In this document: piece by piece, positions 4,724-51,813 of the stretch
Position numbering within the stretch: position 1 is the stretch's first letter
How the letters are laid out: each line of letters begins with the position of its first letter
Virus record (IMG/VR): IMGVR_UViG_3300005253_000054
Span: 36,284 to 100,283 of that record
DNA: 64,000 nt
Direction: 5' to 3' (one strand)
Source: a virus
Notes under the pieces: generated by a model
What the model saw: only the letters and a program-made list of their open reading frames with translations
Database searches by the model: none
Told to the model about the DNA's origin: nothing
Position numbers and translations under genes: made by a program

Positions 4724-4802
4724 TGTTTGATTACTAGATATTTTTGGTTTCGTTGTTACTCTGTTACTGTGTATGAACTTTATTTTTTGGAAGGGGTTTG
4801 TC

Positions 4803-5315
4803 ATGTTTCGATTATGTTTAGTGTTTTTGGTGTTGCTAGTTACTAGGTCAGTTTTGGCAGTTGACGGTCCGATTCCTGAGCCATCATCTGATGTGGGAAC
4901 CATTCATATCGGACCAGAGAATTCAGGTGTTTCTCCTGATGATGTATTGGGCGATTATGAGCAGGATGGAGTAACCAACGGAAGAAATCATTACTTTAAT
5001 GGGGAGTATTTTTTGTGGTGGCAGCCTGCTGCTGATCTTAATATTTGGCTTTTGACGGACACACCAGGAGTAGATGGAAATGCCGCTGTTTGGGTACAAA
5101 TCAATGTTGACGAAAATCAAGCTGTAGATGCTAGTCCGTATTACCCATCTACTAATGCTTCTGGTCCCAATCTCCGGGCAGCAATCAAGCCAATCCCCGA
5201 ACCCTCAACCTTTACCCTCGCCGCCCTTGGCTTTTTGTCATTGGCGTTCTATGGCCGGTGGAGAAGGAAGACTAGTCTATTGGAGCAGATATCCCAAACT
5301 GTTAGGATAAATTGA
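4803..5315 (+). CDS. secreted PEP-CTERM protein sharing a virion-protein domain
   Basis: A 170-residue protein. Residues 1-19 are a signal peptide (hydrophobic LCLVFLVLLVT, cleavage after VLA). Residues about 28-125 form a domain starting DVGTIHIGPENSGVSP and containing NGEYFLWW and NIWLLTDT. The C-terminal region is a PEP-CTERM sorting signal: PEPST, hydrophobic FTLAALGFLSLAFYG, basic RWRRK, then an 18-residue tail. Known biology: exosortase recognises this tail and places proteins at the envelope. The same domain occurs in the virion protein at 62695. The ATG at 4803 is preferred because ggaagggg precedes it and the signal peptide begins there; an ATG at 4773 would add ten residues. Confidence 0.85.
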   Translation: MFRLCLVFLVLLVTRSVLAVDGPIPEPSSDVGTIHIGPENSGVSPDDVLGDYEQDGVTNGRNHYFNGEYFLWWQPAADLNIWLLTDTPGVDGNAAVWVQINVDENQAVDASPYYPSTNASGPNLRAAIKPIPEPSTFTLAALGFLSLAFYGRWRRKTSLLEQISQTVRIN

Positions 5316-5549: not shown

Positions 5550-6731
5550 ATGCCCGGTTTCTTCACCCCAGACCAGATAAGCACCACCCCGGTCATCCCG
5601 CGATGCCCCTCTTGTGGTTTGCGATACAAGTGCAACTCGCCTAGTATGCCCTACACTGGGGAGGGTAAGAGACGTGTCCTAATCGTCGCAGAGGCCCCCG
5701 GTAGGGATGAGGATCAAGAGGGTACCCAACTCATTGGGAAGTCGGGGAAGCATTTAAGACGCATCCTCGCGAAGCTGGGGGTGGATTTGGACCGAGACTG
5801 TTGGAAAACCAACGCTCTTACCTGTTGGCCTGGGGAAGGGAATCCCAAACCTACCGATAAACAAATCAGCTATTGCCGAGCTAATCTCTTACGAACTATC
5901 CAAGAGTTGGAACCCATTACCATCATTCTATTAGGTGGTACGGCTGTCAAGAGTTTGATAGGCTACGTTTGGAAAGAGGCCGTTGGTAGGATCGGTCGAT
6001 GGGTAGGATGGCAGATACCCGATAGACGATTCAATACTTGGATTTGTCCGACGTGGCATCCATCCTATTTGCTACGACAGGATGATAAGGTTCTGGAGTT
6101 GTGGTTTCGTAGGCATCTAAAGGCTGCTTTTGAGAAAGAGGGGAAGCCTTATGTAGATACTGGTCTGAGATATGTTCCTGACGTATTTATAGAACATGAT
6201 CCGAAAACAATAGTAAAATTAGTCGATGATTTTATTTGGATCAATAAACCACTTGCTTTTGATTACGAGACAACCAGTATAAAGCCAGAGGGGGATTGGG
6301 CTGAGATTGTTTGTTGTTCTTTTAGTGATGGAGAAGACACGTTCGCGTTCCCTTGGCAGGGTGAAGCAATCCCAGCGATGGGCCGACTGCTGAGAAGCAA
6401 AGTACCCAAGATTGCATGGAATCTGAAAATGGAAGACCGTTGGACGCGGAAAGAATTTGGCCATCCCGTTAGGAATTGGTTGTGGTGTGGGATGCAAAAC
6501 TCCCATATCCTAGATAACAGACGTGGGATAACTTCTCTCAAGTTTCAAGCATACGTGCAACTAGGTCAAGAGTCCTATGACAATCATATCAAACCTTTTC
6601 TAAAAGGTAAACCGGGACAGGCGAATCGGATTAGGGAAGTAGATACTGACAAATTGCTAAGGTATTGCGGGATGGATTCGTTAAATGCTTTTGAGATTGC
6701 AATGAAACAAATGGAGATAATGGGGATGTAA
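5550..6731 (+). CDS. uracil-DNA glycosylase (family 4/5 type) fused to 3'-5' exonuclease domain
   Basis: Residues 1-200 match the Fe-S uracil-DNA glycosylases: CPSCGLRYKC near residue 19, VAEAPGRDEDQEG (motif A region), TNALTCWP, LLGGTAVKSL and the second motif CPTWHPSYLLR. Residues about 225-393 are a DnaQ-like 3'-5' exonuclease as found in family A polymerases: FDYETTS (Exo I), WNLKMED (Exo II-like), and a final YCGMDSLNAFEI segment (Exo III-like). The polymerase domain itself is a separate gene at 7652. So proofreading is fused to uracil excision rather than to synthesis. The gene overlaps the next start (TAATG). Confidence 0.85.
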   Translation: MPGFFTPDQISTTPVIPRCPSCGLRYKCNSPSMPYTGEGKRRVLIVAEAPGRDEDQEGTQLIGKSGKHLRRILAKLGVDLDRDCWKTNALTCWPGEGNPKPTDKQISYCRANLLRTIQELEPITIILLGGTAVKSLIGYVWKEAVGRIGRWVGWQIPDRRFNTWICPTWHPSYLLRQDDKVLELWFRRHLKAAFEKEGKPYVDTGLRYVPDVFIEHDPKTIVKLVDDFIWINKPLAFDYETTSIKPEGDWAEIVCCSFSDGEDTFAFPWQGEAIPAMGRLLRSKVPKIAWNLKMEDRWTRKEFGHPVRNWLWCGMQNSHILDNRRGITSLKFQAYVQLGQESYDNHIKPFLKGKPGQANRIREVDTDKLLRYCGMDSLNAFEIAMKQMEIMGM

Positions 6732-6925
6732 TGCTTAGTCACGAAGTAGAAACCAATCTGTTAGAAATGTTGGATAGCAGCGATGATGGTATTCCTGATG
6801 AATTGATAAAGAGGTGTGGTAGGATTGAGAAACTTATACAAATGGTAAAGCCTGATGGATTTCTAATTTCTTCTCAGGTTTTGGCAATGGTTGTGGAGCA
6901 ATGGGAAAGGGAGAATCAGAAATGA
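6731..6925 (+). CDS. small hypothetical protein (64 aa)
   Basis: A short acidic helical protein whose ATG overlaps the exonuclease stop (TAATG), indicating coupling. No recognised family. Its end overlaps the ATG at 6922 of the MazG-like gene. Confidence 0.6.
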   Translation: MLSHEVETNLLEMLDSSDDGIPDELIKRCGRIEKLIQMVKPDGFLISSQVLAMVVEQWERENQK

Positions 6926-7284
6926 CACTCAAAAGAGTAAAAGTATGGAAACACTTGTGATCATGGATTCAAGAGTTTAATCAGATAGCAGAGCTGATCC
7001 ATGATTGGGCCATAGAAAAAGGGCATTGGGATGAGGATCAAAACGACGGAGAAATTATAGCTCTAATTCATAGTGAGTTATCCGAAGCTTTGGAAGGAAT
7101 AAGGCAAGGAAACCCTCCTGATAAGCATTGTCCAGAATTCAGCAGCGTAGAAATTGAACTAGCTGACACCGTGATTAGGATTATGCATTATGGGGCTGCC
7201 AGAGAATGGGATATTGCGGGGGCATTGCTGGCGAAAATGGAATTTAACGAGTCGCGGCCACACAAACATGGAAAGAAATTTTGA
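6922..7284 (+). CDS. MazG-like NTP pyrophosphohydrolase, start region interrupted by in-frame TGA
   Basis: From 6961 the frame encodes a phage MazG-like all-alpha pyrophosphohydrolase: WAIEKGHWDED, ALIHSELSEALEGIRQG (metal-binding Glu pair), EIELADTVIRIMHY (E and D of the second motif) and a final NESRPHKHGKKF. Such enzymes hydrolyse dNTPs; in aminoadenine phages a MazG-like enzyme (MazZ) makes dGMP for PurZ. The well-placed ATG at 6922 (gggagaat upstream) is in the same frame, but codon 13 is TGA (6958-6960). The next in-frame ATG is at 7090, inside the conserved core. Translation may start at a rare codon such as ATT 6967, the stop may be read through, or the gene may be damaged. Confidence 0.65.
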
Positions 7285-7464: not shown

Positions 7465-7655
7465 CGGATGAGGAATCTAAACGATTCGAGAAACAGAAAA
7501 TCCCGTTTGGTGAATTCGAGAATCTTACTGTTGACAAGATATTTTTCAATGAAGAGTTAAGAAGTCGATTGGAATGGTACGCGGATGAGGAATCGTTTGT
7601 AGACAAATTGAGGCGGTACTTAAATTCAGATAGGGTGAAGAGGTTATTACGATGA
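7461..7655 (+). CDS. small protein, DUF3820-like pattern
   Basis: A 64-residue protein with KIPFGEFENLTVDKIFF followed by RLEWYADEESFVDKLRRYL. This resembles the short DUF3820-type phage proteins (PFG.y.g.t...I...YL.w). Role unknown. Coupled at both ends by ATGA overlaps between the MazG-like cluster and the polymerase. Confidence 0.55.
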   Translation: MTDEESKRFEKQKIPFGEFENLTVDKIFFNEELRSRLEWYADEESFVDKLRRYLNSDRVKRLLR

Positions 7656-9061
7656 AACCCGCAACACCCCAAGCAATGGAATTGATGATGAAAGGGGCCA
7701 TAGCCTTATCTCAAGTAGAGGCGGACGGGATGCGGATCGACGTTGATTATCTTGATAAGACCATCAAAAAAGTTACGAGGAATATCGCACGACAGACAGA
7801 GAAGCTAAAGGAATCAGAGGAGTGGAAAGTTTGGAAGAAACTCTATGGAAGCAAAATGTCCTTAGAGAGTGGACCACAGTTAGGCAAAGTTCTGTTCGAC
7901 AAGATGGGTCACAAGTGTATAGCCAGAACGAAAACGGGCAAGCCAGCAACGGACCAGACTGCTTTGGAGCAACTAGACATCCCATTCGTAAGGAGATTGT
8001 TGAGCATTAAGAAGAAAAAGAAGATGCTCAGCACGAATCTCAAAGGAATCAGACGTGAGGTAGTAGATGGTATTGTAAGACCTTCATTCAATTTGCACCT
8101 TGTTACTACATACCGATCAAGTGCTGATCGTCCTAACTCAAAAAATATACCAGTTAGGGATAAGAAGATAGGGAGGATGGTACGAAAGGCGTTCATTCCG
8201 AGGGATGGTCATGTTTTGGTAGAGATTGATTACTCTGCCGTAGAATTTAGGGTTGCATCGTGTTTTTGGCAAGATGAGGCAATGGTAGACTATGCCAGTA
8301 ATCCCAATAAGGATATTCATAGGGATATGGCTGCCGAGTGTTATATGCTGAGAGAAGAGCAAGTAACAAAGGATGCCAGATTCTATGCTAAGAATCAATT
8401 TGTTTTTCCAGAGTTGTACGGTAGTTGGTATGGACAATGTGCCATAAATTTATGGGATGCCATTGGAAAAGGAAAGTTGGAAGTTGGTATGACAGATGAT
8501 GAGGAGTGTCGATGGTGTGGTGTGGGTTGTCGTAGTGATGTATGTTCAGTTTGTGGGGGAAAGCAGAAACGGGGATTGAAAGATCACCTGAATTCTAAAG
8601 GGATTACGGGTGTAGAGGGATTCAAAAGGGTTGTTCAAGATGCAGAGAATACTTTTAATGAGATGTTTCACGTATATAACGAAAAGAAAGAGGAATGGTG
8701 GGAAACCTATCTGAAAAGGGGTTATATTCGTTTGATGACCGGGTTTGTTTGTCAGGGAGTTATGAGTCGCAATAAGGTTTACAATTACCCCACTCAAGGT
8801 CCGGGTTTCCACTGTTTGCTTTGGTCCCTGATTCAGATGGTAAAGCGATTGCGAAAGGTGAAGTCGATGGTGATTGGAGAAATATACGATAGCCTTATCT
8901 TGGACGTACATAGGTCTGAGTTGGACGATGTTTTGCAAATGGCTAAACAAGTGATGACGGTCGATTTGTTGAAAGCGTGGGACTGGATTATTTGCCCTAT
9001 GGAAATCGAGGCTGAGGTTGGCGAGGAAAATTGGGCAGATAAGAAAGAGGTGGAGATATGA
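7652..9061 (+). CDS. family A DNA polymerase, polymerase domain only
   Basis: A 469-residue Pol I-like palm/fingers module. Motif A is EIDYSAVEFRVA (usual DYSQIELR, so Gln-Ile is Ala-Val and Leu is Phe). The fingers helix is RFYAKNQFVFPELYGS (usual R..K...FG..YG). Motif C is GEIYDSLILDV, where the usual HDE is YDS, retaining the metal-binding Asp. A small Cys insert (CRWCGVGC, then CSVCGG, about residues 285-309) looks zinc-binding and is not typical of the family. No exonuclease domain is present; it lies in the gene at 5550. Together they should form the replicative polymerase, possibly of the DpoZ kind given the PurZ-like gene at 48124. Confidence 0.9.
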   Translation: MKPATPQAMELMMKGAIALSQVEADGMRIDVDYLDKTIKKVTRNIARQTEKLKESEEWKVWKKLYGSKMSLESGPQLGKVLFDKMGHKCIARTKTGKPATDQTALEQLDIPFVRRLLSIKKKKKMLSTNLKGIRREVVDGIVRPSFNLHLVTTYRSSADRPNSKNIPVRDKKIGRMVRKAFIPRDGHVLVEIDYSAVEFRVASCFWQDEAMVDYASNPNKDIHRDMAAECYMLREEQVTKDARFYAKNQFVFPELYGSWYGQCAINLWDAIGKGKLEVGMTDDEECRWCGVGCRSDVCSVCGGKQKRGLKDHLNSKGITGVEGFKRVVQDAENTFNEMFHVYNEKKEEWWETYLKRGYIRLMTGFVCQGVMSRNKVYNYPTQGPGFHCLLWSLIQMVKRLRKVKSMVIGEIYDSLILDVHRSELDDVLQMAKQVMTVDLLKAWDWIICPMEIEAEVGEENWADKKEVEI

Positions 9062-9235: not shown

Positions 9236-9436
9236 ATGAAAGTTGGGAAAGAAGTTAGTGTGACTCCAGTATGTCAAGGGTGGTGTAGTGTGTTTGCTAC
9301 AAATTTAGTTCCATTAACGGTATCAATACTTGGTAAAACGAAATTAGAAGAAAAATCACAAGTGGAATTTGCTAAAGAAGTTTATGAATGTTATCGACAG
9401 AAACAAGCCAAGGAACGTGGAGAATTAGAAGATTGA
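9236..9436 (+). CDS. small hypothetical protein (66 aa)
   Basis: ATG one base after the previous stop. The end (FAKEVYECYRQKQAKERGELED) is a basic-acidic helix. No recognised family. It overlaps the probable TTG start of the helicase. Confidence 0.5.
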   Translation: MKVGKEVSVTPVCQGWCSVFATNLVPLTVSILGKTKLEEKSQVEFAKEVYECYRQKQAKERGELED

Positions 9437-12400: not shown

Positions 12401-12759
12401 AAGAGGAGCGATTGAAAGCGTTTGCTGATGGGCAGATAAGGGTACTGGTTACTAAACCAAAAATTGCTTCATTCGGTCTTAATTGGCAGCACTGTGCTGA
12501 TATGTCATTCTTCCCGTCTCATAGTCATGAGCAATTTTATCAGTCTTTACGACGATGTTATCGGTTCCAACAAGAGAATTCAGTAACTTGTAATATCGTT
12601 ACGAGTGAGGCTGAGAGTAGAGTTTTGGATAACATGATGCGGAAAGAGCGGCAGGCTGTGGAAATGTATGATGGGATCGTAAGAGAAATGGGTAGGGCTT
12701 TGGATGAATCGAATGGGCAAAAAGGAAACGAGGAAACGAGTATACCGTCATGGTTGTAA
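9433..12759 (+). CDS. SNF2-type DEAD helicase interrupted by two inteins
   Basis: The exteins make an SF2/SNF2-like helicase. Walker A is DCGLGK|T (intein 1 inserted between K and T). The Walker B/motif II is SCDE|SSILKNF (intein 2 after DE). Motif III is LLCTATPAPND; C-terminal helicase motifs include IRVLVTKPKIASFGLNWQ and FYQSLRRCYRFQQ. Such helicases in phages often pair with the DNA methyltransferase that follows here. TTG at 9433 with ggag upstream is the likely start; an ATG at 9388 lies inside the previous gene. Without inteins the protein is about 440 residues. Function depends on both splicing events, since each intein interrupts the ATPase site. Confidence 0.85.
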   Translation: MNYQTFLKTKRLRTDPKGFDPIWLPDWLFGFQNHLCDWSIRLGRSALYEDCGLGKGSPPNMPVLTPTGFVPIGSLEIGDSVIASDGKSYDVKGVYFKPRQDVFRLWFSDGVSLVVDSDHLHICRTNNDRQRDKPWRVLSTKELLECNNLRYGSDGKSRNYDIPVVGPVEFSVDCPKTLTPYIIGALLGDGCTSQPSMIQFTSADSEIVNRINNELLGGVELVYKDRYEYRLKTGKTGCVKHPIRAFLYRIGMMGKLSYQKSIPKEYLMSKRIEDRLDLLRGLMDTDGYIMKCGTSQFYSVSRKLATDVEFLVRSLGGVPTFSRKQTSLNGERKRDCYTVTFSLKTFNPFFLSRKAERWNPDPRDNGRWIDSIDYEGQSETVCISVDSPDSSYVTRSFIVTHNTPQQLVWAENVVRHTNKPVLIVAPLAVSAQFVTEAEKFGVGIHRSRDGRLKKGINVTNYERLHHFDPKRLAGISCDECFPPGTAIDVVNPLDNSLEKKYIEDIARGDQILNASGVDHVKHIWKRKINGAVQVGTEGSKITCSENHPFFTLHGWKFARDLRAGDCVMETASAMYLVRGDFQSEICSEQDGEILRNILLSEMADEYTGTQSKSTQSNCCQKKRKIESIMVQRRISNSQKRTQADSRVVSDERSESESEGVQTIERDRTQAEDSGREWETFDGAATDAIRFVGWGVGCRISNYPWEKDTRISNELQGRYRLPITKNSNRVGWAFSLFQKRIGSEERRNAGFVRVDSVEVLELGHPRLDKWRDEKGDVYFYDIEATRHPSFSVNGLLVHNSSILKNFDGKMRRRITDFVSSINYRLLCTATPAPNDHMELGTSSEALGVMSRGQMLGMFFVNGGETTQQWLLKGHAKKRFWQWMGTWARAIRMPSDLGFDDGDFILPELIMKQHLVPSEVTDGFFPTMAVTLDEQRAERKRTMQARCEKVAEIVPNDRPFVAWCHLNPESDLLEKLIPDAVQVSGSMKDEVKEERLKAFADGQIRVLVTKPKIASFGLNWQHCADMSFFPSHSHEQFYQSLRRCYRFQQENSVTCNIVTSEAESRVLDNMMRKERQAVEMYDGIVREMGRALDESNGQKGNEETSIPSWL
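9598..10638 (+). mobile_element. intein 1 in helicase Walker A, class 3-like, with LAGLIDADG endonuclease
   Basis: 347 residues between K and T of GLGKT. The first residue is Gly, not Cys or Ser. The end is IVTHN followed by extein Thr. Block F reads ETVCISVDS with Cys at the position where class 1 inteins have Asp, and block G has Thr before His-Asn. Non-nucleophilic residue 1 plus Cys F:4 plus Thr G:5 fits class 3 inteins, but the diagnostic block B Trp appears to be His (DSDHLHI). The LAGLIDADG endonuclease is in frame: IIGALLGDG and LLRGLMDTDG are its two motifs. Boundaries come from restoring an intact GLGKT. Confidence 0.85.
10910..10938 (+). promoter_or_regulatory. sigma70-like promoter inside intein 2
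   Basis: TTGACA (10910-10915), 17 bp, TATATT (10933-10938): 11 of 12 consensus bases with ideal spacing, within the coding sequence of the Hint N-terminal part. Predicted start of transcription near 10945, about 43 nt before the nested endonuclease ATG at 10988. Confidence 0.65.
10988..11806 (+). CDS. Vsr/DUF559-like homing endonuclease nested out of frame in intein 2
   Basis: 272 residues read in the +1 frame relative to the helicase/intein. A zinc finger CTWCGEIFNP...RFCGTSC (Cys 56, 59, 76, 80) is followed by basic helices (KVRAKVSKRLKEIG) and a Vsr-like PD-(D/E)XK domain: NYKVDIGC (D199), TAIELDGHSHY (E210, D212, H214), LGWTVLRFWNWDI. This matches the Vsr-like/EDxHD homing endonucleases known to accompany inteins and introns. 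GGAG lies 6 nt before the ATG and a promoter at 10910-10938. Its last third overlaps Hint blocks F and G, so that DNA encodes two constrained proteins. An ATG at residue 35 is an alternative but lacks a ribosome site. Confidence 0.85.
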   Translation: MSNIYGREKSTGRFKSAPKDLKLPVAKIIHSLPCMVGNSHEIYEPEIVSWRQPRQCTWCGEIFNPKYVANKMARFCGTSCSAKWRMNTPEHKAKVHNPTVAKKRGKSKALWFRGGSATAKKELKRIAELCPMKDPKVRAKVSKRLKEIGHKPRIQGGNGRPLTEPQQMLLDLLGGEWVAEYPITLGKKIPGYPTNYKVDIGCQLRKTAIELDGHSHYSRKELDQKKDEMLASLGWTVLRFWNWDILDWINGGMKKETSISMILKQHDIHLSV

Positions 12760-13703
12760 AGAAACAACTAATTACTGATAACTATGCTCTCCATTGCGGT
12801 GATTGCGTGGAGGTGTTAGCAGATTATCCGGATGAATCAATTGGCTTTTCCGTATTCTCACCACCGTTTAGTGATTTGTATTCGTACACGGATGAGCAAG
12901 AGGATATGAGCAACGTCAGGGATTACAAGGAATTCTTTAAGCATTTCAGATTCTTAGTCAATGAATTGCTTCGTCTTATGCTTCCTGGTCGTGTGGTGGC
13001 TGTGCATTGCATGGATATACCTACTTACAAACGGGATGGTGAGGGTATAGGGATTCGGGATTTTCCGGGTGATATTGTCCGATGTTTTCAGAAAGTGGGG
13101 TTCATTTTTCATAGCCGTCATTGCATCTGGAAAGATCCCCTGATAGCAGCGACTAGAACGAAAGCAATCGGACTAGCCCACAAGTCAGTAGTAAAGGATA
13201 GCAGTATATGTCGTACTGGTATTCCAGATTACATCGTGTCGTTCCGAAAGCCTGGGGAGAATCTGAAACCGATTGAGAATCTGAATGGGTTTACTGAATA
13301 CATAGGTTCTCGATCAGTTCCTAAAGACTTTGATAAGTATATTGGCTGTGAGATTCCAAAAAAGAACAGACGATCCCAATGGATTTGGCAACAGTACGCT
13401 TCCCCTGTTTGGTTTGATATTGACCAAACAAAGGTATTGCCATTTAGGAATGCAAAGGGGAAGGATGATACTAAGCACATTTGTCCTTTACAACTTCAGA
13501 CGATAGAAAGGTGTATGGTATTGTGGTCGAGGGAAGGTGATAATGTTCTATCACCATTTATGGGAGTGGGTAGTGAGGTTTATGTAGCTGTAAAGAATGG
13601 GAGAAGGGGTATCGGTGTAGAACTCAAAAAGAGTTATTATAGGCAAGCCGTTTTGAATGTGAAACAAGCCGAGAAGAAAAGGTCAGCTGGTTTCGATTTG
13701 TAA
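12750..13703 (+). CDS. DNA methyltransferase (N4-cytosine/N6-adenine, beta-type order)
   Basis: A 317-residue SAM-dependent DNA methyltransferase. The catalytic motif SPPF (FSVFSPPFSDLYSY, residues about 35-48) comes first. The SAM-binding region comes late (LSPFMGVGSEVYVAV, then RRGIGVELKKSYY). This order is typical of beta-class enzymes; SPPF favours N4-cytosine but does not exclude N6-adenine. The start overlaps the helicase stop, so the two are coupled. No cognate restriction nuclease is seen, suggesting self-protection of phage DNA. Confidence 0.85.
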   Translation: MVVKKQLITDNYALHCGDCVEVLADYPDESIGFSVFSPPFSDLYSYTDEQEDMSNVRDYKEFFKHFRFLVNELLRLMLPGRVVAVHCMDIPTYKRDGEGIGIRDFPGDIVRCFQKVGFIFHSRHCIWKDPLIAATRTKAIGLAHKSVVKDSSICRTGIPDYIVSFRKPGENLKPIENLNGFTEYIGSRSVPKDFDKYIGCEIPKKNRRSQWIWQQYASPVWFDIDQTKVLPFRNAKGKDDTKHICPLQLQTIERCMVLWSREGDNVLSPFMGVGSEVYVAVKNGRRGIGVELKKSYYRQAVLNVKQAEKKRSAGFDL

Positions 13704-14281: not shown

Positions 14282-14296
14282 CCGAAAGGATTGACG

Positions 14297-16138
14297 ATGC
14301 CCCCAGAACTCTATCGTAAATACCGACCTACCAAATTCTCAGAGGTATTAGGTCAACCTGAAGCAATCAAGACCCTAAACGATTGGGGCAAGCAAAAAGC
14401 GATACCCCACTTCCTGCTATTCACAGGCCCTAGTGGGTGTTTGCGTGGGGATACGAAGATATTTGATCCGGTGGATTCTAGTGATTTGTCTATTCGGGAG
14501 CGTTGGAGGATTGGTCATCCTTTCCATGTTTTGTCGAGGAACGAGGATAACAGGCTGGTAGTGGCGGAAGCGATGCCACCGGTCCGCCATTCTCCAGATT
14601 GGATGTATCGTGTAAAAACTTCTGAATCGCTTTTTTACGTAACGTCCGAACACCAGTTCCTCGTTGACACTGGTGAGTACCTTTCATTGAGGGAACTTTA
14701 CGCTCGGAGATTCGACGGAGTCCATCTTCTGACCACTTGGGACATTTCCCAAGCAATTCAACACCAAGATGCTCACCATTGTTTGCAAACAAGATTAGAT
14801 TATTCGGATCGTTATCGGTCTTATCCCCGTTTTTATGATGAACGACTTCCGATTCAGTCAGATATCGATTCAAAATACGCTCAAGCACCAAACGATGTTC
14901 TAGGACGTAACCGTTTCTCGCATTTGGATGTTTTGGCATCCGTATCAAAACATAACCATCCCCGTCAATTACACGACCACCTTTCCAGGCAGGATTATCG
15001 ACACCACGTTGGAAAGAATACTGTGGACGAATTTGGGTGTTTGAACGTTTCAACGATTCACGAACGTTTTGACGTTTTGTCTTCAGACGTTTTGCGATTT
15101 GTTTCTGAGTCCAACCGTCTTGATACATGCCCGAAACTAACTTGTCCCGTTCTGGAGTCCAAATACGACGCCTGTGTGGATAGAAGCCTTTTGGCATTGT
15201 CTTCTCCTTGTTTTGATAGGACCATATTCTCTAGTACCATTATACAAGATATCTCCCAAACAAGCAAGCAGCCCTACTATGATTTTCATGTTCCTATTTA
15301 CGAGAATTATTGGGCTGGTGGTTTGATTCATCATAATTGTGGCAAAACGACTTTAGCCCGAATTCTTCGGAAGAAACTCAAGTGTTCCGACCACGATTTT
15401 ATAGAGGTGAATGCCGCCGAGACAAACGGGATTGATATGGTGCGGTCTATCGCGAGGGTAATGGGCCTTGCACCGATGATGGGCAGGTGTAGGGTGTGGC
15501 TCATAGATGAGGCTGCTAGGCTCACTAAGGATGCTCAGAGTGCTTTCCTCAAGATGCTGGAGGATACGCCCGAACACGTCTATTTTATGCTGGCGACAAC
15601 TGATCCTCAGAAGTTACTACCCACGATTATGACAAGGGCATCTGAGATTAAGGTAAAGGCTTTATCTTCTAAGGATATGACGGATTTGGTTAGAGGCGTA
15701 CGTCATCAAGAGGAGCAAGCCAATTCTGAAGAGGATTTGGTTGGAATATCCGATGACGTTTGTGATAAAATTATTGACATAGCAGACGGATCGGCAAGGA
15801 AAGCATTGGTCCTATTGCATCAAGTGATTGGTGAAGGGGACGAGGAGAAGCAGTTAGCGGTCTTGCAACAGGCAGATAGCAAGCAACAGGCAATTGAGAT
15901 TTGCCGATTGCTAATGAAAGCGAATACATCGTGGAAGCAGATGGCTAAGCTGCTTAGAGCCGTTGACGACGAGCCGGAGGGTATCAGGCGGCTGATGTTG
16001 GCTTATATGACCAAGGTAGGGCTGAGTGGTAATAAGAGGGCCATCGTGTGTCTTGAGGCGTTTGAGGAGCCTTATTTCAATACTGGCAGGGCAGGATTGG
16101 TTTTGTCCTGTTGGAATGTAATCAATGGAGGTGGATGA
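14297..16138 (+). CDS. clamp loader ATPase (RFC/DnaX-like) interrupted by an intein
   Basis: Exteins total about 313 residues: LYRKYRPTKFSEVLGQ (N-terminal clamp-loader signature), Walker A GPSG|CGKTT split by the intein, Walker B CRVWLIDEAARL, sensor 1 FMLATTD, and TRASEIK where SRC usually occurs. It loads the clamp from 3710. The ATG at 14297 with gaaagga upstream is preferred over TTG 14291. ATPase activity requires removal of the 300-residue intein. Confidence 0.9.
   Translation: MPPELYRKYRPTKFSEVLGQPEAIKTLNDWGKQKAIPHFLLFTGPSGCLRGDTKIFDPVDSSDLSIRERWRIGHPFHVLSRNEDNRLVVAEAMPPVRHSPDWMYRVKTSESLFYVTSEHQFLVDTGEYLSLRELYARRFDGVHLLTTWDISQAIQHQDAHHCLQTRLDYSDRYRSYPRFYDERLPIQSDIDSKYAQAPNDVLGRNRFSHLDVLASVSKHNHPRQLHDHLSRQDYRHHVGKNTVDEFGCLNVSTIHERFDVLSSDVLRFVSESNRLDTCPKLTCPVLESKYDACVDRSLLALSSPCFDRTIFSSTIIQDISQTSKQPYYDFHVPIYENYWAGGLIHHNCGKTTLARILRKKLKCSDHDFIEVNAAETNGIDMVRSIARVMGLAPMMGRCRVWLIDEAARLTKDAQSAFLKMLEDTPEHVYFMLATTDPQKLLPTIMTRASEIKVKALSSKDMTDLVRGVRHQEEQANSEEDLVGISDDVCDKIIDIADGSARKALVLLHQVIGEGDEEKQLAVLQQADSKQQAIEICRLLMKANTSWKQMAKLLRAVDDEPEGIRRLMLAYMTKVGLSGNKRAIVCLEAFEEPYFNTGRAGLVLSCWNVINGGG
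14490..15197 (-). CDS. HNH homing endonuclease encoded antisense within intein 3
   Basis: A 235-residue protein on the minus strand, the only convincing minus-strand gene in the window. Residues 12-50 look like a helix-turn-helix (WTPERDKLVSGMYQDGWTQK, then IAKRLKTKRQNV). Residues 66-140 are an HNH_3-type core: GVDNPAWKGG, GYVLIRMPKHPNA, VLEHRLVLERIL, VVHHKNGDKTDNDPNNLILF. The Shine-Dalgarno aaggag lies 7 nt before the ATG, and a near-consensus promoter at 15239-15267. The 3' part is antisense to Hint block B and neighbours. By analogy it cleaves inteinless alleles and drives intein spread. Confidence 0.9.
   Translation of the reverse strand: MPKGFYPHRRRIWTPERDKLVSGMYQDGWTQKQIAKRLKTKRQNVRESLKRSNTQIRPQYSFQRGVDNPAWKGGRVIDGDGYVLIRMPKHPNARNGYVLEHRLVLERILNRYLTESEVVHHKNGDKTDNDPNNLILFANNGEHLGVELLGKCPKWSEDGLRRISERKVPSMKGTHQCQRGTGVRTLRKKAIQKFLHDTSNLENGGPVASLPPLPACYPRSSTKHGKDDQSSNAPE
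15239..15267 (-). promoter_or_regulatory. antisense sigma70-like promoter for HNH gene
   Basis: On the minus strand TTGCTT (15267-15262), 17 bp, TATAAT (15244-15239, perfect). The ribosome site and ATG of the HNH gene follow about 40 nt downstream. Located inside intein coding sequence. Confidence 0.65.
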
Positions 16139-43395: not shown

Positions 43396-44196
43396 ATGGG
43401 AAAAATTGCAGATATATCTGAAGTCTTACTCGAATTAGGCTTATCCTCTTCAGCAACGGATGAGGAAAGGGCTATCGCCAATTCTGCCATCATAAGAGCA
43501 GAGGCAGCGATTCGTAGACACATCTTTTATGATCCTGTTGAACGAACCAGAACCGAATACTATCCTCAATCCGAAAATATGATTCGGAGTAGGGGAGTTG
43601 TCTGGGAGACGGAAGGGGACCAAGCATTCTTAAGACAAGTGGCTAATGCCTCTGCAACCGAGTTACAGATTCAGAATATCCCTATCCGATCCATTACGCA
43701 GTTATTCGTTGATTTTGATGGTAGGGCTGGTACAAGAGCTTCCTCGTTTGCAGATTCGACATTAAAGGTAGAGGGTACCGATTACTGGCCTAACAATGAT
43801 GGGTTTGATAGTAGCGATGCTAATATCTGTAGGGATGGAATCATTCGGTCTGGTGGGTTATGGCCGACTACGCCGGGTACCGTCAAGATTGTCTATGTGG
43901 CGGGCTACACGCCCGCTGAGTTGCACGGACAGGACAATATCGTAGATGCAATGCCCATCTTGGATGCGGTCATAGACGAGGCTGTGAGGCGTACTAAGAA
44001 GGCTTTCGTGAATATGAAGAAAACGGGAGCAGGTTGGACGGCCGGGCCGTTTACGTCCGAGACGTTGGGTGATTATCGGTATCAAATCGACTCAAAACTT
44101 TCGGCTCGATTATTTGGTAGTTCGTTTGATATTACGTCAGAGAGTAAGGAGAAAATTTCTTCGTTCGTCAATTTTGGATGGTCACTTAGTTCGTGA
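43396..44196 (+). CDS. head-tail connector-like protein
   Basis: 266 residues. The helical start with repeated Ala and acidic residues (ATDEERAIANSAIIRAEAAI) and a later VKIVYVAGYTPAEL pattern are typical of gp6-like connector proteins of siphoviruses. Position among portal, neck and tail genes fits. Ribosome site weak. Confidence 0.6.
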   Translation: MGKIADISEVLLELGLSSSATDEERAIANSAIIRAEAAIRRHIFYDPVERTRTEYYPQSENMIRSRGVVWETEGDQAFLRQVANASATELQIQNIPIRSITQLFVDFDGRAGTRASSFADSTLKVEGTDYWPNNDGFDSSDANICRDGIIRSGGLWPTTPGTVKIVYVAGYTPAELHGQDNIVDAMPILDAVIDEAVRRTKKAFVNMKKTGAGWTAGPFTSETLGDYRYQIDSKLSARLFGSSFDITSESKEKISSFVNFGWSLSS

Positions 44197-44939
44197 GTGG
44201 AATACGTATAGTGGAACCAATTGAAAAAGTAGCGATGCGATTCCAAATCGTGTTTACCTATAGCTGCAATATGGCTTGCCAGTATTGCGATAGGTACGTG
44301 GATTCCTTGCCTTGGCCTAATACGGACATTACGAAAGAGGATTTAAGGCTAGGTTTAGAGGTAGTAAAGAAATCAAGAGTTCACATTAAACAGTGCCGCA
44401 TAACTGGAGGCGAGCCAAAGGTACACCCCTCCTTTGAGGAATTGGCAAAGTACGTTTTGGAAACATGGGGGGATAAAGGCAGGATCAGGACGTCAGTAAG
44501 TACGAATATGGTTCTAAAGAATCCGAGAGGATTGGGGGTGAGGTGGCAGAAATATCCGATGGCAGAGAAGAATCATGTTCCGGTAATGATTAGCCCCTAT
44601 GATTTGGGGAAACATCCAGTAAGGGGGTACACTACGTATTGCCGAGTGCAATGTCGATGTGGTAGGTTGTTTGATAAATTTGGGTTTGCCTCGTGTCCTT
44701 ATGCTGGTCCGATTGGTAGAGTATTGGGAATTGATCCTTACCAGTCCATGCCAGTCTTGTATGGTAGGCCGGATATTTGCAGGCATTGTGTGCATTCGTT
44801 GGATAGGTGGGATAGGCTTAAGATTTATAAGGATGCGTTGGCCGGTAAAATTGAATTCCCGACGAAGACATTTCGAGAAGGATTGGAAAGGTTCAAAGCA
44901 GAACCTACAGAGTTTAAGACTTTTCAGGAAAGGGTATAA
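44193..44939 (+). CDS. radical SAM enzyme
   Basis: 248 residues from a GTG start overlapping the previous stop. YSCNMACQYCDRY holds the CxxxCxxC [4Fe-4S] motif, and CRITGGEPKVHPSF contains the GGEP SAM-binding motif. Later Cys pairs (CRVQCRCG, CPYAG, CRHCVH) suggest an auxiliary cluster or zinc, as in SPASM-like enzymes. Could modify a phage or host peptide or nucleotide; the substrate is unknown. Confidence 0.8.
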   Translation: MSGIRIVEPIEKVAMRFQIVFTYSCNMACQYCDRYVDSLPWPNTDITKEDLRLGLEVVKKSRVHIKQCRITGGEPKVHPSFEELAKYVLETWGDKGRIRTSVSTNMVLKNPRGLGVRWQKYPMAEKNHVPVMISPYDLGKHPVRGYTTYCRVQCRCGRLFDKFGFASCPYAGPIGRVLGIDPYQSMPVLYGRPDICRHCVHSLDRWDRLKIYKDALAGKIEFPTKTFREGLERFKAEPTEFKTFQERV

Positions 44940-47168: not shown

Positions 47169-47741
47169 ATGGCTGATGTTCTAAACGAGACTGTTGAAGA
47201 TGCGATGAAAAATGTTAATGAGGCTTGTGGTGAGGCTTTGGAAAGTGGTAAGTGGATGACCGTTACTTGGTTTGTCAAGGATGGGAAACTTATGATGAGA
47301 AGAACTACATGGAATTTTCCCACGGGTGATTTTGAGAAGTGTATAGAGCAATTGCAAAACGTTTGCAATACACAAACGGGGAAGTCTAGGCCCGATAAAG
47401 GACCACTGCCCTTTGCGGATATCCTTGCGGGGAAAAGAACGCCTATGTCCGTGGTGGATAAAGTAGCGGAGGAATCGAGTATTCCGCCTGCTAAGGAACC
47501 TACTTTTGAGGAGATTGTGGAATCGGCTAAAACTGATCCACCGCCTGGAAACGTGGTGGTGGAAAAAGTGGGTGTTGATTCTAAGGAGTTTGATAAAGCA
47601 ACTGAGGAAATGTTTAGTAAGGGTTTGGAAAAGAAAGTGGAAAAGTTGGATAAGGAGATTGTGGATAGAGAATGTGACGAAACTGTGGCAAAAACCCCGC
47701 CCGATGATACAGAGGAGACCAAACCCCCATGCGAAGACTGA
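47169..47741 (+). CDS. hypothetical protein (190 aa)
   Basis: Start after gggagaccc. N-terminal half folded-like (WMTVTWFVKDGKLMM), C-terminal half acidic and helical. No family recognised. Confidence 0.55.
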   Translation: MADVLNETVEDAMKNVNEACGEALESGKWMTVTWFVKDGKLMMRRTTWNFPTGDFEKCIEQLQNVCNTQTGKSRPDKGPLPFADILAGKRTPMSVVDKVAEESSIPPAKEPTFEEIVESAKTDPPPGNVVVEKVGVDSKEFDKATEEMFSKGLEKKVEKLDKEIVDRECDETVAKTPPDDTEETKPPCED

Positions 47742-48106
47742 TAAACTATCTAAGATCATGGTTCATTGCTTCCAAAGTTTCTCGACAGTTAGGAGAGTCT
47801 GAACAACGTCTTACAGCGTTGGAAAGAGATTGTGGGATTGCTAAGAAATTGTTTGAGAGATACCAAAGGAATTTGGAAAGAATATTCGATCAGGCACAAG
47901 AGCACATTGAACGTGCTTCTATTTTGACTAAACAATACGAAGAGGCTTTGGAAAAAGAGCGTGCTGCCAACCGAGTGCATGAGAAGACGATAGAAGGGTT
48001 GGTAGCACAGAGTGAGACGTTTGTGAAACGGTGGGAAACACAAACAGCCGTGGAGGTAATGAAGCAGACGGGGGCAAGACCTAGAACCCTTGATGACGAT
48101 GTTTAA
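47729..48106 (+). CDS. coiled-coil protein (125 aa)
   Basis: Overlaps the previous gene. Nearly all helix, with heptads (AQEHIERASILTKQYEEALE). Possible structural spanin or scaffold role is unsupported. Confidence 0.5.
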   Translation: MRRLINYLRSWFIASKVSRQLGESEQRLTALERDCGIAKKLFERYQRNLERIFDQAQEHIERASILTKQYEEALEKERAANRVHEKTIEGLVAQSETFVKRWETQTAVEVMKQTGARPRTLDDDV

Positions 48107-48123: not shown

Positions 48124-49236
48124 ATGAAAACTGGTAAATTTAATGTAGTTGTGGACGGTCAATGGGGTAGTTGTGGTAAGGGAAAAACCGTAACTTCATT
48201 GGCGGACAAATTCAGGCCAGAATTTGTATCAACCACTAATATGCCGAATGCGGGACACACCGCGGTATGGGATGACGGCAGAAAATTTGTGGCAAAGTCG
48301 CTACCGGTGGCGGCTATACTTAGAAAGTGGATTGCCAATCAAGGGTATAAACCAACGATCATATTGGGGGCATCTAGTGCATTCCGGGTGGAAAATCTAT
48401 TAAAAGAGGTGGAGGAGTGTTTGTTGGATGCCACAAGTCTATGGATTCACGAAAGATCCGGGGTGATGACGGACCGTCACGCCAAAATGGAGATGGGTCA
48501 GGGTGGTACTAAGCACATTGCTAGTACTATGCAGGGATGTGGTGCCTTCCTAGCGGAAAAAATAATGCGGGGGGAAGATGTGGAATTGGCGGGTGGAGAT
48601 TCCCGGTTGAGAAGGCATATTTTTCCAGGTTTATCCATGGAGTTGAATGAAAAACTGAGTTTTGATGAAACAATATTACATGAGGGTGCCCAGGGATTTT
48701 CACTTGATATTTCCCACGGAAGTCATTATCCATTTTGTACGAGTAGGGGAACTACAGCAACGCAGAACATGGCCGATATGGGGATCAACCCCAGGAAACT
48801 GGGAGATATATATTTGGTAATACGACCGTTTCCCATAAGGGTTGGTAATGTAGTAGAGGGTGGTAAAATGGTTGGATACTCAGGGGATTGTTATGAGGAT
48901 CAAGAGGAAATGAAGTGGGCCGACGTTGGTGAGATAGCCGGTGTTGGGACTGAGGAATTTAGTGGGGAACTTACCACCGTTACCAAACGGCTAAGAAGGG
49001 TATTTTCATTCTCGAAAATACAATTGAGGGAGGCAGTAGAAATAAATGGTGCAAACAAGTTGGTATTGAATTTTGCGGACTATCTAGATTGGAATTGTAG
49101 GGGTTGTGATGATTGGGAAAATCTGCCGAATATTGTATTGGATTTTATTGGGATGTGCGAGGGTGTGGCTGGAATTCCTGTTGTAATTGTGGGCACTGGT
49201 GCTAAAAATGGCGATACATGTTGGAGGAATCAATAA
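48124..49236 (+). CDS. purZ: PurZ-like adenylosuccinate synthetase homologue
   Basis: 370 residues of the PurA/PurZ fold. P-loop region VVVDGQWGSCGKGKT (residues 8-22) aligns with GTQWGDEGKGK of PurA, with Ser16 where PurA has its catalytic Asp; this swap is the reported mark of PurZ, which joins Asp to dGMP on the route to 2-aminoadenine. NAGHT (42-46) keeps the catalytic His. Other family segments include MQGCGAFLAEKI, LHEGAQGFSLDI and CTSRGTTATQNM. Its presence, with a MazG-like gene and family A polymerase, suggests Z-DNA. DatZ was not found in the window. Confidence 0.75.
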   Translation: MKTGKFNVVVDGQWGSCGKGKTVTSLADKFRPEFVSTTNMPNAGHTAVWDDGRKFVAKSLPVAAILRKWIANQGYKPTIILGASSAFRVENLLKEVEECLLDATSLWIHERSGVMTDRHAKMEMGQGGTKHIASTMQGCGAFLAEKIMRGEDVELAGGDSRLRRHIFPGLSMELNEKLSFDETILHEGAQGFSLDISHGSHYPFCTSRGTTATQNMADMGINPRKLGDIYLVIRPFPIRVGNVVEGGKMVGYSGDCYEDQEEMKWADVGEIAGVGTEEFSGELTTVTKRLRRVFSFSKIQLREAVEINGANKLVLNFADYLDWNCRGCDDWENLPNIVLDFIGMCEGVAGIPVVIVGTGAKNGDTCWRNQ

Positions 49237-49538
49237 TGAATGAACCTGGAAAAAAGAAAAGTATACTTGAGGAGGCCGGTGAATTAGTGGCAGGACCACG
49301 CGAGGATGATTATGGTCCTCCAATTGATGATTGGAAACGAACTGCTGCGATATGGTCTGCCATTTTGGGTATTACAATTACGGCAGAACAAGCATGTATG
49401 TGTATGGTGGGGGTTAAAATATCCCGTCAGGTAAACAAACCCAGTCGGGACAATTTGGTGGATGCGGCCGGTTACCTTCTTTGTATCGAAATGATAGAAG
49501 AGGTTGTAAGAAATGAACGCCTTAGCAAAAGCGTATGA
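49236..49538 (+). CDS. small phage protein, DUF6378-like
   Basis: 100 residues, start overlapping the purZ stop by one base. LEEAGELVAGPREDDYGPP, a WSAILG segment and RDNLVDAAGYLLC match the DUF6378-type phage pattern. The all-helical layout may suggest a nucleotide pyrophosphohydrolase fold; this is speculative. Position next to purZ suggests a nucleotide-related role. Confidence 0.55.
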   Translation: MNEPGKKKSILEEAGELVAGPREDDYGPPIDDWKRTAAIWSAILGITITAEQACMCMVGVKISRQVNKPSRDNLVDAAGYLLCIEMIEEVVRNERLSKSV

Positions 49539-51813
49539 TCGTAGCCTTTCTGTAACTCAACAGGCAAGACAAACTGCCCTTGATCTGAAAGCAGCGGGCA
49601 TCGACCTGTCGCCGTCTGGTATGGGTGGTATGGATACATTCCGAAGCCAACGGGGTGATAAGGAGCGGTATGCACAGTTTAGAGGGTGGTTGTACGCTGC
49701 TATCAATGCTTTGGCGAAAGAGGCTGCTGGTCAACCAGTCAACGTGGGTAAGTTGCTAGATGTAGAACCAGAGAATGGGGAACGAAAAACACCTACAAGT
49801 TCTAAGCAATTTCATCGTAACAAAATGTTAGAGGGTGCCCATACGAAAACGGCTGGAAGGGATTTTGAGGTATTGGTTTCTCATCCGCTAATTGATGTAT
49901 TGGAGAAACCGAATCCGATTCAATATCGTTATCAGTTTGTTTACTCATTCGTAGCTAATCTGCTGTTGACTGGTTGGAGTTACATTATTATTGATACGGA
50001 TAAGGATGGGAATCTTCAATTCTTTTCCATTCCGTCTACGTGGGTTCAACCAATACATAAACCAGAACCATTTTCGGCTTTCAAGATTGTCAATCCTAAA
50101 AATCCAGCCGCCTCAACAAATGCCAAACCAATTCCGAGAGAGAACGTAGCGTTTGCATGTCTTCCTGATCCGTCGAGTCCTTTGGGGGCATTGGCTCCTG
50201 CTGCTTCTCAGATGAATGCGATTAAGATTGATAATCATATTCAGTCAAGTCAGAATGTATTTTTCGAGAATAGTATTCATCCGTCTGCCATTATTTCAAT
50301 TGGTAATGACCCTCATCCTGATGTTCCGAGTGGCGTTCGTCCTAGATTGACTGGGGTGCAGCGTAGGCAAGTTATAGGGGTGATTAAGCGGGCATGGGCG
50401 GGTGTTGCAAATTATGGGGAACCTGCGATTATTGATGGTCTGATTGAAGGTATTCAGATGTTATCGGCTAATAGCACTGAAATGGGATGGGACAAATCGG
50501 AGAGATCAGTCAAGATGAGAATCCTATCTGCTTTCGGTGTTCACGAAAGTATTTTGGGCGAGACTGTTAAGGTGGGTGGTCATGCTCAAGCATTTGTAAT
50601 TGATAGGCGATTCTGTAAAAACGTCAATGTCAATCTGAATTTGCTTGGCACAGTCCTAACTGAGTCCGTCAATTTTCATTCTGAAGAAGCTGTGAAATTA
50701 CTTGTTTGGTGGGAGAAATGCACAGCCGAAGATGAGAGTCTGAGACAGAAGAGTTTGATTGAGGCTCGTAAGAATGAGGATATTACTAGAAACGAATATA
50801 GGGCTGAGTTGGGATTCCCTCCATTAGAAGATCAGGATGAACGCAGCAAGCTGTTGGAATCTGCTGGTGGATTAACGGTAACACTTACCACATTAAAAGA
50901 GGTTGGTTTGGGTACTGTCGGTAGAGAACAAGCTGCTAAATTGTTGGCTTTATTCCTACAGATTTCGGAAGAGCAAGCTAAGGAATTGACTGGCGTGGGA
51001 GAAGTTTCGTTGCCTGAAGTTATCGAGGAATTATCTGCCGTTCTGGAGGAGATGAAGAAACCCATTAAGGTCGATTTTGATGATGAGGAATTACAGGGTA
51101 TTCTGAAACAACTTACTAGGACTTCTAGCCGATCTTCTATGACCGCTGAGTCTGCTAAGTTTGTGGCCGAGGAAACGGAAGGTAGGGTTATCAAATTGGA
51201 AACGGCTTTGCAGATAGAACGATCAGAGCGGAAATGTGATGGTAGGTTAATGTTGGAAGGGGCTAAGTCTGATATAACCAAATCACAGGTCGAGACTGTA
51301 AAAGCTTTTCAAGAGTTGGGAAAGTCGATGGCTGATAATCAATCGACTGAGAATCAACTCAAGTTAGTTCACAAGTTTTTGGATAGCTTTTCCGAGAGTG
51401 TAAAAGGCAGTCTCGAATCCATTGACAAGCAATCAGCTCAACCTATTACTATAAATGTTCCTGTTACTGTAGAACCCACCCCAATCGAAATAGGGGTGGA
51501 GAATAAAGTAGAACCGGCAGAGGTGAAGATAACCAATGAGGTGAAAACTCCTAATGTGAGTGTACCAGTAACGGTACAACCATCCGAAGTAATAACACCA
51601 ATAATTGTAGAACCTACCTCAGTTCAGATTGAGAATAAGATAGAGACTCCGAAAGTGATTGTTAAGTCAGAACCGCAAATTGATATTACCGTTCCCAAAA
51701 TTCCTGCTGCCGAGGTAGAGGTAAAAGTGAATGTAACGAGAGATGACGCACCGAAGAGGGCCACCATCATACATCCAGATCAGAGACAATCTCAAGTTAT
51801 ATTGGAAGATTAA
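49513..51813 (+). CDS. portal protein
   Basis: 766 residues. The first 430 show the HK97-type portal order: FRGWLYAAINALAKE, PNPIQYRYQFVYSF, GWSYIIIDTDKDG and NEYRAELGFPPLED. A long C-terminal extension contains Pro-Glu-Val repeats (VEPTPIEIGVENKVEP) and is likely flexible. Starts within the preceding gene. Dodecameric ring of the head vertex. Confidence 0.8.
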   Translation: MNALAKAYDRSLSVTQQARQTALDLKAAGIDLSPSGMGGMDTFRSQRGDKERYAQFRGWLYAAINALAKEAAGQPVNVGKLLDVEPENGERKTPTSSKQFHRNKMLEGAHTKTAGRDFEVLVSHPLIDVLEKPNPIQYRYQFVYSFVANLLLTGWSYIIIDTDKDGNLQFFSIPSTWVQPIHKPEPFSAFKIVNPKNPAASTNAKPIPRENVAFACLPDPSSPLGALAPAASQMNAIKIDNHIQSSQNVFFENSIHPSAIISIGNDPHPDVPSGVRPRLTGVQRRQVIGVIKRAWAGVANYGEPAIIDGLIEGIQMLSANSTEMGWDKSERSVKMRILSAFGVHESILGETVKVGGHAQAFVIDRRFCKNVNVNLNLLGTVLTESVNFHSEEAVKLLVWWEKCTAEDESLRQKSLIEARKNEDITRNEYRAELGFPPLEDQDERSKLLESAGGLTVTLTTLKEVGLGTVGREQAAKLLALFLQISEEQAKELTGVGEVSLPEVIEELSAVLEEMKKPIKVDFDDEELQGILKQLTRTSSRSSMTAESAKFVAEETEGRVIKLETALQIERSERKCDGRLMLEGAKSDITKSQVETVKAFQELGKSMADNQSTENQLKLVHKFLDSFSESVKGSLESIDKQSAQPITINVPVTVEPTPIEIGVENKVEPAEVKITNEVKTPNVSVPVTVQPSEVITPIIVEPTSVQIENKIETPKVIVKSEPQIDITVPKIPAAEVEVKVNVTRDDAPKRATIIHPDQRQSQVILED

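What the first reader, a model, noticed from the sequence alone, without database searches (positions are those of the whole stretch)
48124..49538. PurZ-like gene suggests 2-aminoadenine (Z) genome
Seen: DGQWGSCGKGK with Ser where PurA has the catalytic Asp, NAGHT kept. A MazG-like gene (6961-7284) and family A polymerase (7652) are also present, plus a DUF6378-like gene beside purZ. Known: PurZ, MazZ and DpoZ form the Z-DNA pathway, often with DatZ. No HD-type DatZ is in the window, so adenine exclusion could rely on a gene outside it.
Basis: partly seen in the sequence, partly recalled or inferred. Interest (0 to 1): 0.85.

Follow-up and report, generated by a model that had tools for sequence, protein, structure and literature searches.

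The report
Lone purZ gene in ordinary phage
This phage carries a real gene for making the unusual DNA letter Z (2-aminoadenine), of a type otherwise seen in very large uncultured phages, but it lacks every partner enzyme known to help Z replace A, and its genome still looks like ordinary A-containing DNA.

Summary
Observation: confirmed, with corrections. The PurZ-like ORF is 48124-49236 (370 aa); 49218-49538 is a separate DUF6378 gene. Ser replaces the PurA catalytic Asp, and NAGHT is intact.

Enzyme: a true PurZ-type synthetase. It falls on the PurZ side of the PurA/PurZ0/PurZ tree (UFBoot 100, with S-2L, phiVC8 and SH-Ab 15497) and carries PurZ-diagnostic S, T and F. It belongs to a divergent sister clade seen only in metagenomic viral contigs (up to 436 kb). 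In 50,697 phage records the best match is 39%.

Interpretation: only partly supported. The record's ends overlap by exactly 121 bp, so the genome (100,162 bp) is probably complete. It has no DatZ, DutZ, DmtZ/NDT, MazZ(DUF550) or DpoZ. purZ+DUF6378 is inserted before the portal gene; nine portal-homologous contigs have no purZ. A-containing 6-bp palindromes are as depleted here (0.52) as in those contigs (0.57), unlike known Z phages (0.68-0.92) or the closest large-phage purZ group (0.92).

Best reading: a recently acquired, probably active PurZ that makes dZTP and partial A-to-Z substitution at most. The large relatives, with an N-glycosidase-like gene beside purZ or a DatZ-like gene, are the better candidates for full Z genomes.

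The parts
48124..49236 (+). purZ-like gene, 370 aa: succino-amino-deoxyadenylate synthetase of a PurZ sister clade; Ser16 in place of PurA Asp13, NAGHT 42-46, ELTTVTK loop, Phe equivalent to S-2L F306
49218..49538 (+). DUF6378 gene, 106 aa; overlaps purZ by 19 bp and the portal gene by 26 bp; all-helical predicted fold with no PDB match; role unknown
49513..51813 (+). portal gene (PF04860), directly downstream; in homologous contig L352 it follows the 47729-48106 homologue with no purZ/DUF6378 between
47729..48106 (+). ORF directly upstream of purZ (125 aa, unknown function); left edge of the purZ-DUF6378 insertion
7652..9061 (+). DNA polymerase family A domain, 469 aa, phrog_17 type, not DpoZ; motif C reads YDS
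5550..6731 (+). UDG-like domain plus 3'-5' exonuclease domain, the separate proofreading half of the polymerase
6967..7284 (+). MazG-like ORF with intact ELSE...ELAD motif but no canonical start codon (in-frame TGA at 6958-6960); best local candidate for dGTP to dGMP supply

Best explanation
The gene encodes an active PurZ-type synthetase that condenses dGMP and aspartate, most likely with ATP, to N6-succino-2-amino-dAMP; host PurB and kinases would then make dZTP, as in known Z phages (enzyme chemistry inferred from homology and residues, not shown here). The phage acquired it with DUF6378 as a two-gene insertion in its head-gene operon, between ORF 47729-48106 and the portal gene, from the gene pool of large phages whose purZ forms a sister clade of canonical PurZ (tree and synteny shown; donor and direction inferred). 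Because the phage has no recognisable enzyme that removes dATP and no Z-selective polymerase, dZTP would compete with dATP at the host's and phage's ordinary polymerases. The expected outcome is partial A-to-Z substitution at most, or a newly acquired function, rather than a long-established full Z genome (inferred).
For: Tree: UFBoot 100 for {S-2L, SH-Ab 15497, Kokobel2, Bm1, phiVC8, ZP6 + large-phage clade with window}; UFBoot 100 for the large-phage clade; PurZ0, archaeal PurA and bacterial PurA fall outside. Residues by S-2L numbering: S23 is Asp in 12/12 PurA but Ser in the window and 49/49 large-phage PurZ; T273 is Gly in 12/12 PurA but Thr in the window and 49/49; F306 is Phe in the window, 49/49 large-phage and 8/8 PurZ. 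No DatZ, DutZ, NDT or MazZ in the whole record, with the known Z phages as positive controls. Exact 121-bp end overlap implies a closed genome. DpoZ score 87/500, against 909 and 1194 bits for true DpoZ. Portal-homologous contigs lack purZ, and in L352 the site is empty. A-containing 6-mer palindromes obs/exp: window phage 0.52 (575/1113), portal relatives 0.57, other viral contigs 0.63, Z-type reference phages 0.68-0.92 (eight, all or part of the genome), large-phage group A 0.92. Phages with hydroxymethylated DNA show no site avoidance (PMC6286503).
Against: S-2L PurZ can itself consume dATP (PMC8342488), so full substitution without DatZ is imaginable. S-2L replicates with a PrimPol that takes A and Z alike, so DpoZ is not obligatory. 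An unrecognised dATPase could hide among the unannotated ORFs. Palindrome depletion changes slowly, so a recently acquired full Z genome would look the same. Nine homologous contigs, most of them fragments, are a thin basis for 'recent insertion' as opposed to loss elsewhere. The enzyme's own activity has not been tested.
Confidence: 0.62

Rival explanations
1. Full Z-genome phage: PurZ together with the MazG-like ORF and PurZ's own dATP use (or an unrecognised dATPase) suffices for complete replacement of A by Z.
For: Intact PurZ with all diagnostic residues; MazG-like ORF with intact motif; S-2L does without DpoZ, and its PurZ can act as a dATPase (PMC8342488).
Against: No DatZ/DutZ/NDT/MazZ in the apparently complete genome; strong depletion of A-containing palindromes, as in portal relatives without purZ; MazG-like ORF lacks a canonical start.
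Confidence: 0.2
2. PurZ is active but serves something other than genome-wide Z, for example draining dGTP/dGMP or aspartate, or raising 2-amino-purine nucleotides that interfere with host DNA or defence; the virion DNA stays A-DNA.
For: purZ lies in a head-gene operon, with ORFs overlapping into the portal gene, rather than in the replication module; ordinary palindrome depletion; no partner genes.
Against: All characterised PurZ and PurZ0 enzymes that bracket this clade serve Z-DNA (PMC12884076); dZTP made in the cell would be expected to be incorporated to some extent.
Confidence: 0.13
3. The protein is a PurA (adenylosuccinate synthetase) with a chance Ser, boosting host adenine synthesis.
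For: Belongs to PF00709; NCBIfam PurZ score is under the curated cut-off.
Against: Tree and three diagnostic positions; the Ser is fixed in all 49 relatives examined; replacing the catalytic Asp would disable PurA chemistry.
Confidence: 0.03

Closest known systems
PurZ of cyanophage S-2L / vibriophage phiVC8 / Acinetobacter phage SH-Ab 15497
   Same: Same fold family, Ser for Asp13, TTVT loop, Phe stacking position, sister clade with UFBoot 100
   Different: Only 32-37% identical by tblastn; those phages keep purZ with datZ, a MazG-type ppase and (except S-2L) dpoZ in a replication cluster; here it stands alone beside the portal gene
PurZ0 of actinobacteriophages (DrRobert, Typher, Galactica; Wayne/Ghobes type)
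   Same: Ser for Asp, Z-pathway synthetase
   Different: Outside the window's clade; always with dutZ, often dmtZ (PMC12884076), neither of which is present here; Met instead of Phe at the F306 position
PurZ genes of large metagenomic viral contigs (L003, L093-L100, up to 436 kb)
   Same: Closest relatives, 50-57% identical; same PurZ residues
   Different: In the closest group purZ sits in a conserved block with an NDT-family gene; unlike the window phage they show no depletion of A-containing palindromes
Archaeal PurA (Archaeoglobaceae, Methanobrevibacter)
   Same: Short PurA architecture, 28-31% identity
   Different: GDEGKGK with catalytic Asp, Gly at T273, outside the PurZ group

Membership tests
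PurZ (2-amino-dAMP succinate synthetase), broad phage PurZ group | Asp13 of PurA replaced by Ser | tested here: met
   Ser16 of the window protein
PurZ (broad phage PurZ group) | Clusters with characterised PurZ to the exclusion of PurA and PurZ0 | tested here: met
   UFBoot 100, SH-like 0.997; as a sister clade, not inside canonical PurZ
PurZ (broad phage PurZ group) | PurZ-specific substrate-loop Thr (S-2L T273) and purine-stacking Phe (F306) | tested here: met
NCBIfam NF038379 (curated PurZ model) | Score above curated cut-off of 300 bits | tested here: not met
   221.8 bits, still the best NCBIfam match
PurZ (broad phage PurZ group) | Makes dSMP from dGMP + Asp | not testable with these tools
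   needs purified enzyme
Z-genome phage | dATP-removing enzyme (DatZ, DutZ, DUF5664 or DmtZ) | tested here: not met
   DatZ, DutZ and NDT profiles: no match in the whole record, positive controls found; DUF5664 was searched only within the MazZ alignment
Z-genome phage | Z-selective DNA polymerase DpoZ | tested here: not met
   87 of 500 and 31 of 350 bits; not obligatory, S-2L lacks it
MazZ (DUF550 dGTP pyrophosphohydrolase) | Match to the MazZ profile built from S-2L, Bm1, SH-Ab, PSA28, Kokobel2 | tested here: not met
   no match at E<=0.001 in G000; a different MazG-like ORF exists
Z-genome phage | 2-aminoadenine in virion DNA | not testable with these tools
   needs nucleoside mass spectrometry; indirect palindrome test points against a long-standing full Z genome

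The most novel reading that the evidence does not exclude
A third PurZ lineage operates in very large uncultured phages (viral contigs up to 436 kb), several times larger than the known Z phages compared here. They use ordinary rather than DpoZ polymerases and remove adenine nucleotides with a purZ-linked N-glycosidase-like enzyme or a DatZ homologue. The window phage has recently picked up purZ from that pool and makes a mixed A/Z genome with PurZ alone.
Probability: 0.4. Interest if true: 0.8.

Novelty: new variant of a known kind. Interest (0 to 1): 0.55.

Why it matters
Known Z phages carry purZ with helper genes for removing dATP, supplying dGMP and choosing Z at the polymerase. A phage with purZ alone makes it testable whether PurZ by itself gives partial Z substitution and whether that already pays off, i.e. 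how a Z genome could begin. The sister clade in large phages, unseen among isolates, would extend Z-DNA to genomes many times larger and adds an independent case of a dNMP N-glycosidase-like gene paired with purZ. The contrast between A-containing and A-free palindromes is a cheap test that can be run on any metagenomic purZ phage.

Tried and rejected
DUF6378 as a hidden MazZ: a 41-sequence alignment gave a confident all-helical model (pLDDT 91) but no PDB fold match (best E 0.8, TM below 0.4 by query length), no profile match to MazG chains, and the family is common in phages with no reported Z chemistry; rejected as evidence for the Z pathway. It does also occur near datZ in Bm1 (E 5e-9) and weakly in phiVC8 (E 0.0035).

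AF2 model of the window PurZ: only three sequences were supplied; pLDDT 51, not used.

First IQ-TREE run on 100 sequences timed out; replaced by FastTree and a 40-taxon IQ-TREE.

DeoC-like reading of the gene family between NDT and purZ in large phages: resemblance by eye only, no Pfam, PHROG or PDB match; left as a guess.

Close relatives of the window polymerase in IMG/VR: none found. Relation of the window polymerase to those of the large phages: only weak generic PolA similarity.

Full report
Checking the observation. The window is the last 64 kb of a 100,283-bp IMG/VR record (G000:C1:36284-100283). The ORF at 48124-49236 encodes 370 aa with DGQWGSCGKGK and NAGHT as stated. Pfam, NCBIfam, PHROG and PDB searches all put the protein in the adenylosuccinate synthetase superfamily with PurZ as the best sub-family. 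The NCBIfam PurZ score (221.8) is below the curated cut-off (300). By tblastn against 50,697 phage records the matches are PurZ and PurZ0 genes plus a few weak PurA-type ones; the best is 39% identical.

PurZ or PurA? A tree of 100 sequences (FastTree) and one of 40 (IQ-TREE, LG+G4) give the same picture. Bacterial PurA and archaeal PurA are outside; PurZ0 branches next; the window protein is in a clade of large-contig PurZ (UFBoot 100) that is sister to canonical PurZ of S-2L, phiVC8, SH-Ab 15497, Bm1, ZP6 and Kokobel2 (joint UFBoot 100). Mapping the S-2L residues described in PMC8342488 onto the alignment, the three positions that separate PurZ from PurA are all PurZ-like in the window protein: S23 (Asp in 12/12 PurA), T273 (Gly in 12/12 PurA) and F306 (Cys, Gly or Lys in PurA). 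They are conserved in 49/49 relatives. Since characterised PurZ0 and PurZ bracket the clade (PMC12884076), PurZ activity is the parsimonious inference; it is not shown here.

A clade unseen in isolates. A viral-contig scan with a PurZ profile kept 80 of 373 encoding loci. About fifty of these form the window's clade. Many lie on contigs of 150-436 kb (e.g. L093 408 kb, L115 436 kb, L116 427 kb); contig integrity was not checked. Queries from three members find nothing above 39% identity among phage records. No paper on PurZ in jumbo phages was found in the held library, which lacks most subscription journals.

Helper genes in the relatives. In the group closest to the window (12 loci), purZ lies in a conserved block, and an NDT-family gene (PF05014) is within about 3 kb upstream on the same strand in 11 of 12. 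Its profile matches CMP N-glycosidase MilB, Blasticidin M and nucleoside deoxyribosyltransferases, the neighbourhood of DmtZ, the dAMP hydrolase/transferase of PurZ0 phages (PMC12884076). dUTPase-like genes occur in many of these genomes. In the second group (PurZ with ThyX, RNR and a PolA), DatZ-profile hits occur in seven genomes counting G027 below; the three tested match PHROG 7076, dATP triphosphohydrolase. That 118-kb contig (G027/L136) has purZ followed by mazZ-like and datZ-like genes. None of the polymerases tested is DpoZ by NCBIfam (positive controls 909 and 1194 bits).

The window phage itself. The first 121 bp of the record equal the last 121 bp, so it closes as a 100,162-bp circle, and head genes at the end run on into tail genes at the start. 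Searches of the whole record with DatZ, DutZ, MazZ and NDT models found nothing, while known Z phages gave strong hits to the first three. The polymerase is a family A domain split from a UDG/exonuclease ORF and is not DpoZ. The MazG-like ORF has an intact metal motif but an in-frame TGA (6958-6960) and no canonical start after it; whether it is expressed is open.

An insertion in the head operon. Nine contigs carry a portal protein 42-53% identical to this phage's, several with syntenic neighbours and capsid. None has purZ in the fetched flank or anywhere on its contig, including one of 92 kb. In L352 the homologues of ORFs 47169 and 47729 are followed after about 200 bp by the portal gene: the purZ-DUF6378 pair is absent. 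In the window purZ overlaps DUF6378 by 19 bp and DUF6378 overlaps the portal gene by 26 bp, so the pair is probably co-expressed with a late gene, an odd time to start making a nucleotide precursor.

An indirect test of the genome's chemistry. Z blocks many restriction enzymes at A-containing sites, so a Z phage should lose the usual selection against A-containing palindromes but not against A-free ones; phages with hydroxymethylated DNA indeed show no site avoidance (PMC6286503). Observed/expected ratios of 6-bp palindromes (maximal-order Markov expectation; non-palindromic controls 0.95-1.08), A-containing then A-free: S-2L 0.92/1.00, phiVC8 0.88/0.35, SH-Ab 0.91/0.39, PSA28 0.73/0.18, DrRobert 0.68/0.27, BpsS-140 0.86/(too few), Bm1 (part) 0.76/0.56, ZP6 (part) 0.78/0.39; large-phage group A 0.92/0.42; group B 0.95/0.90; DUF6378-bearing viral contigs without detected purZ 0.63/0.79; portal relatives 0.57/0.61; window phage 0.52/0.67 (A-containing 0.46-0.56 in every 20-kb piece). 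Group A looks like the Z phages; the window phage looks like its relatives without purZ. Group B shows little depletion of either class, so other protections are possible there. Ordinary contigs vary widely (sd 0.18), so the test is statistical and host-dependent, and it would miss a recent switch.

Conclusion. The enzyme call is well supported; the Z-genome call for this phage is not. The most likely state is a recently acquired, active PurZ giving partial substitution at most. The stronger candidates for Z genomes are the large phages from whose gene pool this purZ seems to come.

Noticed in passing
L005:6869-10507: purZ of a 137-kb viral contig is interrupted by what look like two inteins, one right after NAGH and one at the CTSR motif of the dGMP pocket; read by eye from the 1212-aa ORF.
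   Followed up: no
L003:7350-7736 and equivalents in L005, L093-L097, L099, L100, L102, L103: NDT-family gene within about 3 kb upstream of purZ in 11 of 12 loci; profile matches MilB/Blasticidin M N-glycosidases. Candidate DmtZ analogue.
   Followed up: partly
L003:7729-8427 (16 loci): Conserved 230-aa gene between the NDT gene and purZ, no Pfam/PHROG/PDB match; looks DeoC-like by eye, which would consume deoxyribose 5-phosphate.
   Followed up: partly
L136:9929-13088: purZ, mazZ-like and datZ-like genes in a row on a 118-kb contig in the large-phage clade.
   Followed up: partly
window 1-64000 and L006/L007: Record has an exact 121-bp end overlap although IMG/VR classes it linear: closed genome of 100,162 bp.
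   Followed up: yes
whole record: GCGC is nearly absent (9 sites, 0.11 of expected), the most depleted tetranucleotide; GGATCC, CTCGAG and TTTAAA have no site at all.
   Followed up: no
window 9388-12759 and 14291-16138: Helicase with two intein-like insertions and clamp-loader subunit with one.
   Followed up: no
window 4773-5315: Small secreted-type protein with a C-terminal PEP-CTERM sorting motif (Pfam E 3e-5, above cut-off), unusual in a phage; hints at an exosortase-bearing host.
   Followed up: no
window 12750-13703: N4/N6 DNA methyltransferase with SPPF motif, which is typical of N4-cytosine rather than N6-adenine enzymes (from general knowledge).
   Followed up: no
window 6922-7284: MazG-like ORF with in-frame TGA at codon 13 and no canonical start after it; possible rare ATT start, sequence error or decay.
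   Followed up: partly
window 49218-49538: DUF6378 is a confidently modelled helical protein with no PDB fold match, found next to DNA polymerase/primase genes in several phages.
   Followed up: partly
window 44193-44939 and L006:13308-14021: Two paralogous radical SAM genes in one phage genome, the second within a glycosyltransferase-rich cluster.
   Followed up: no
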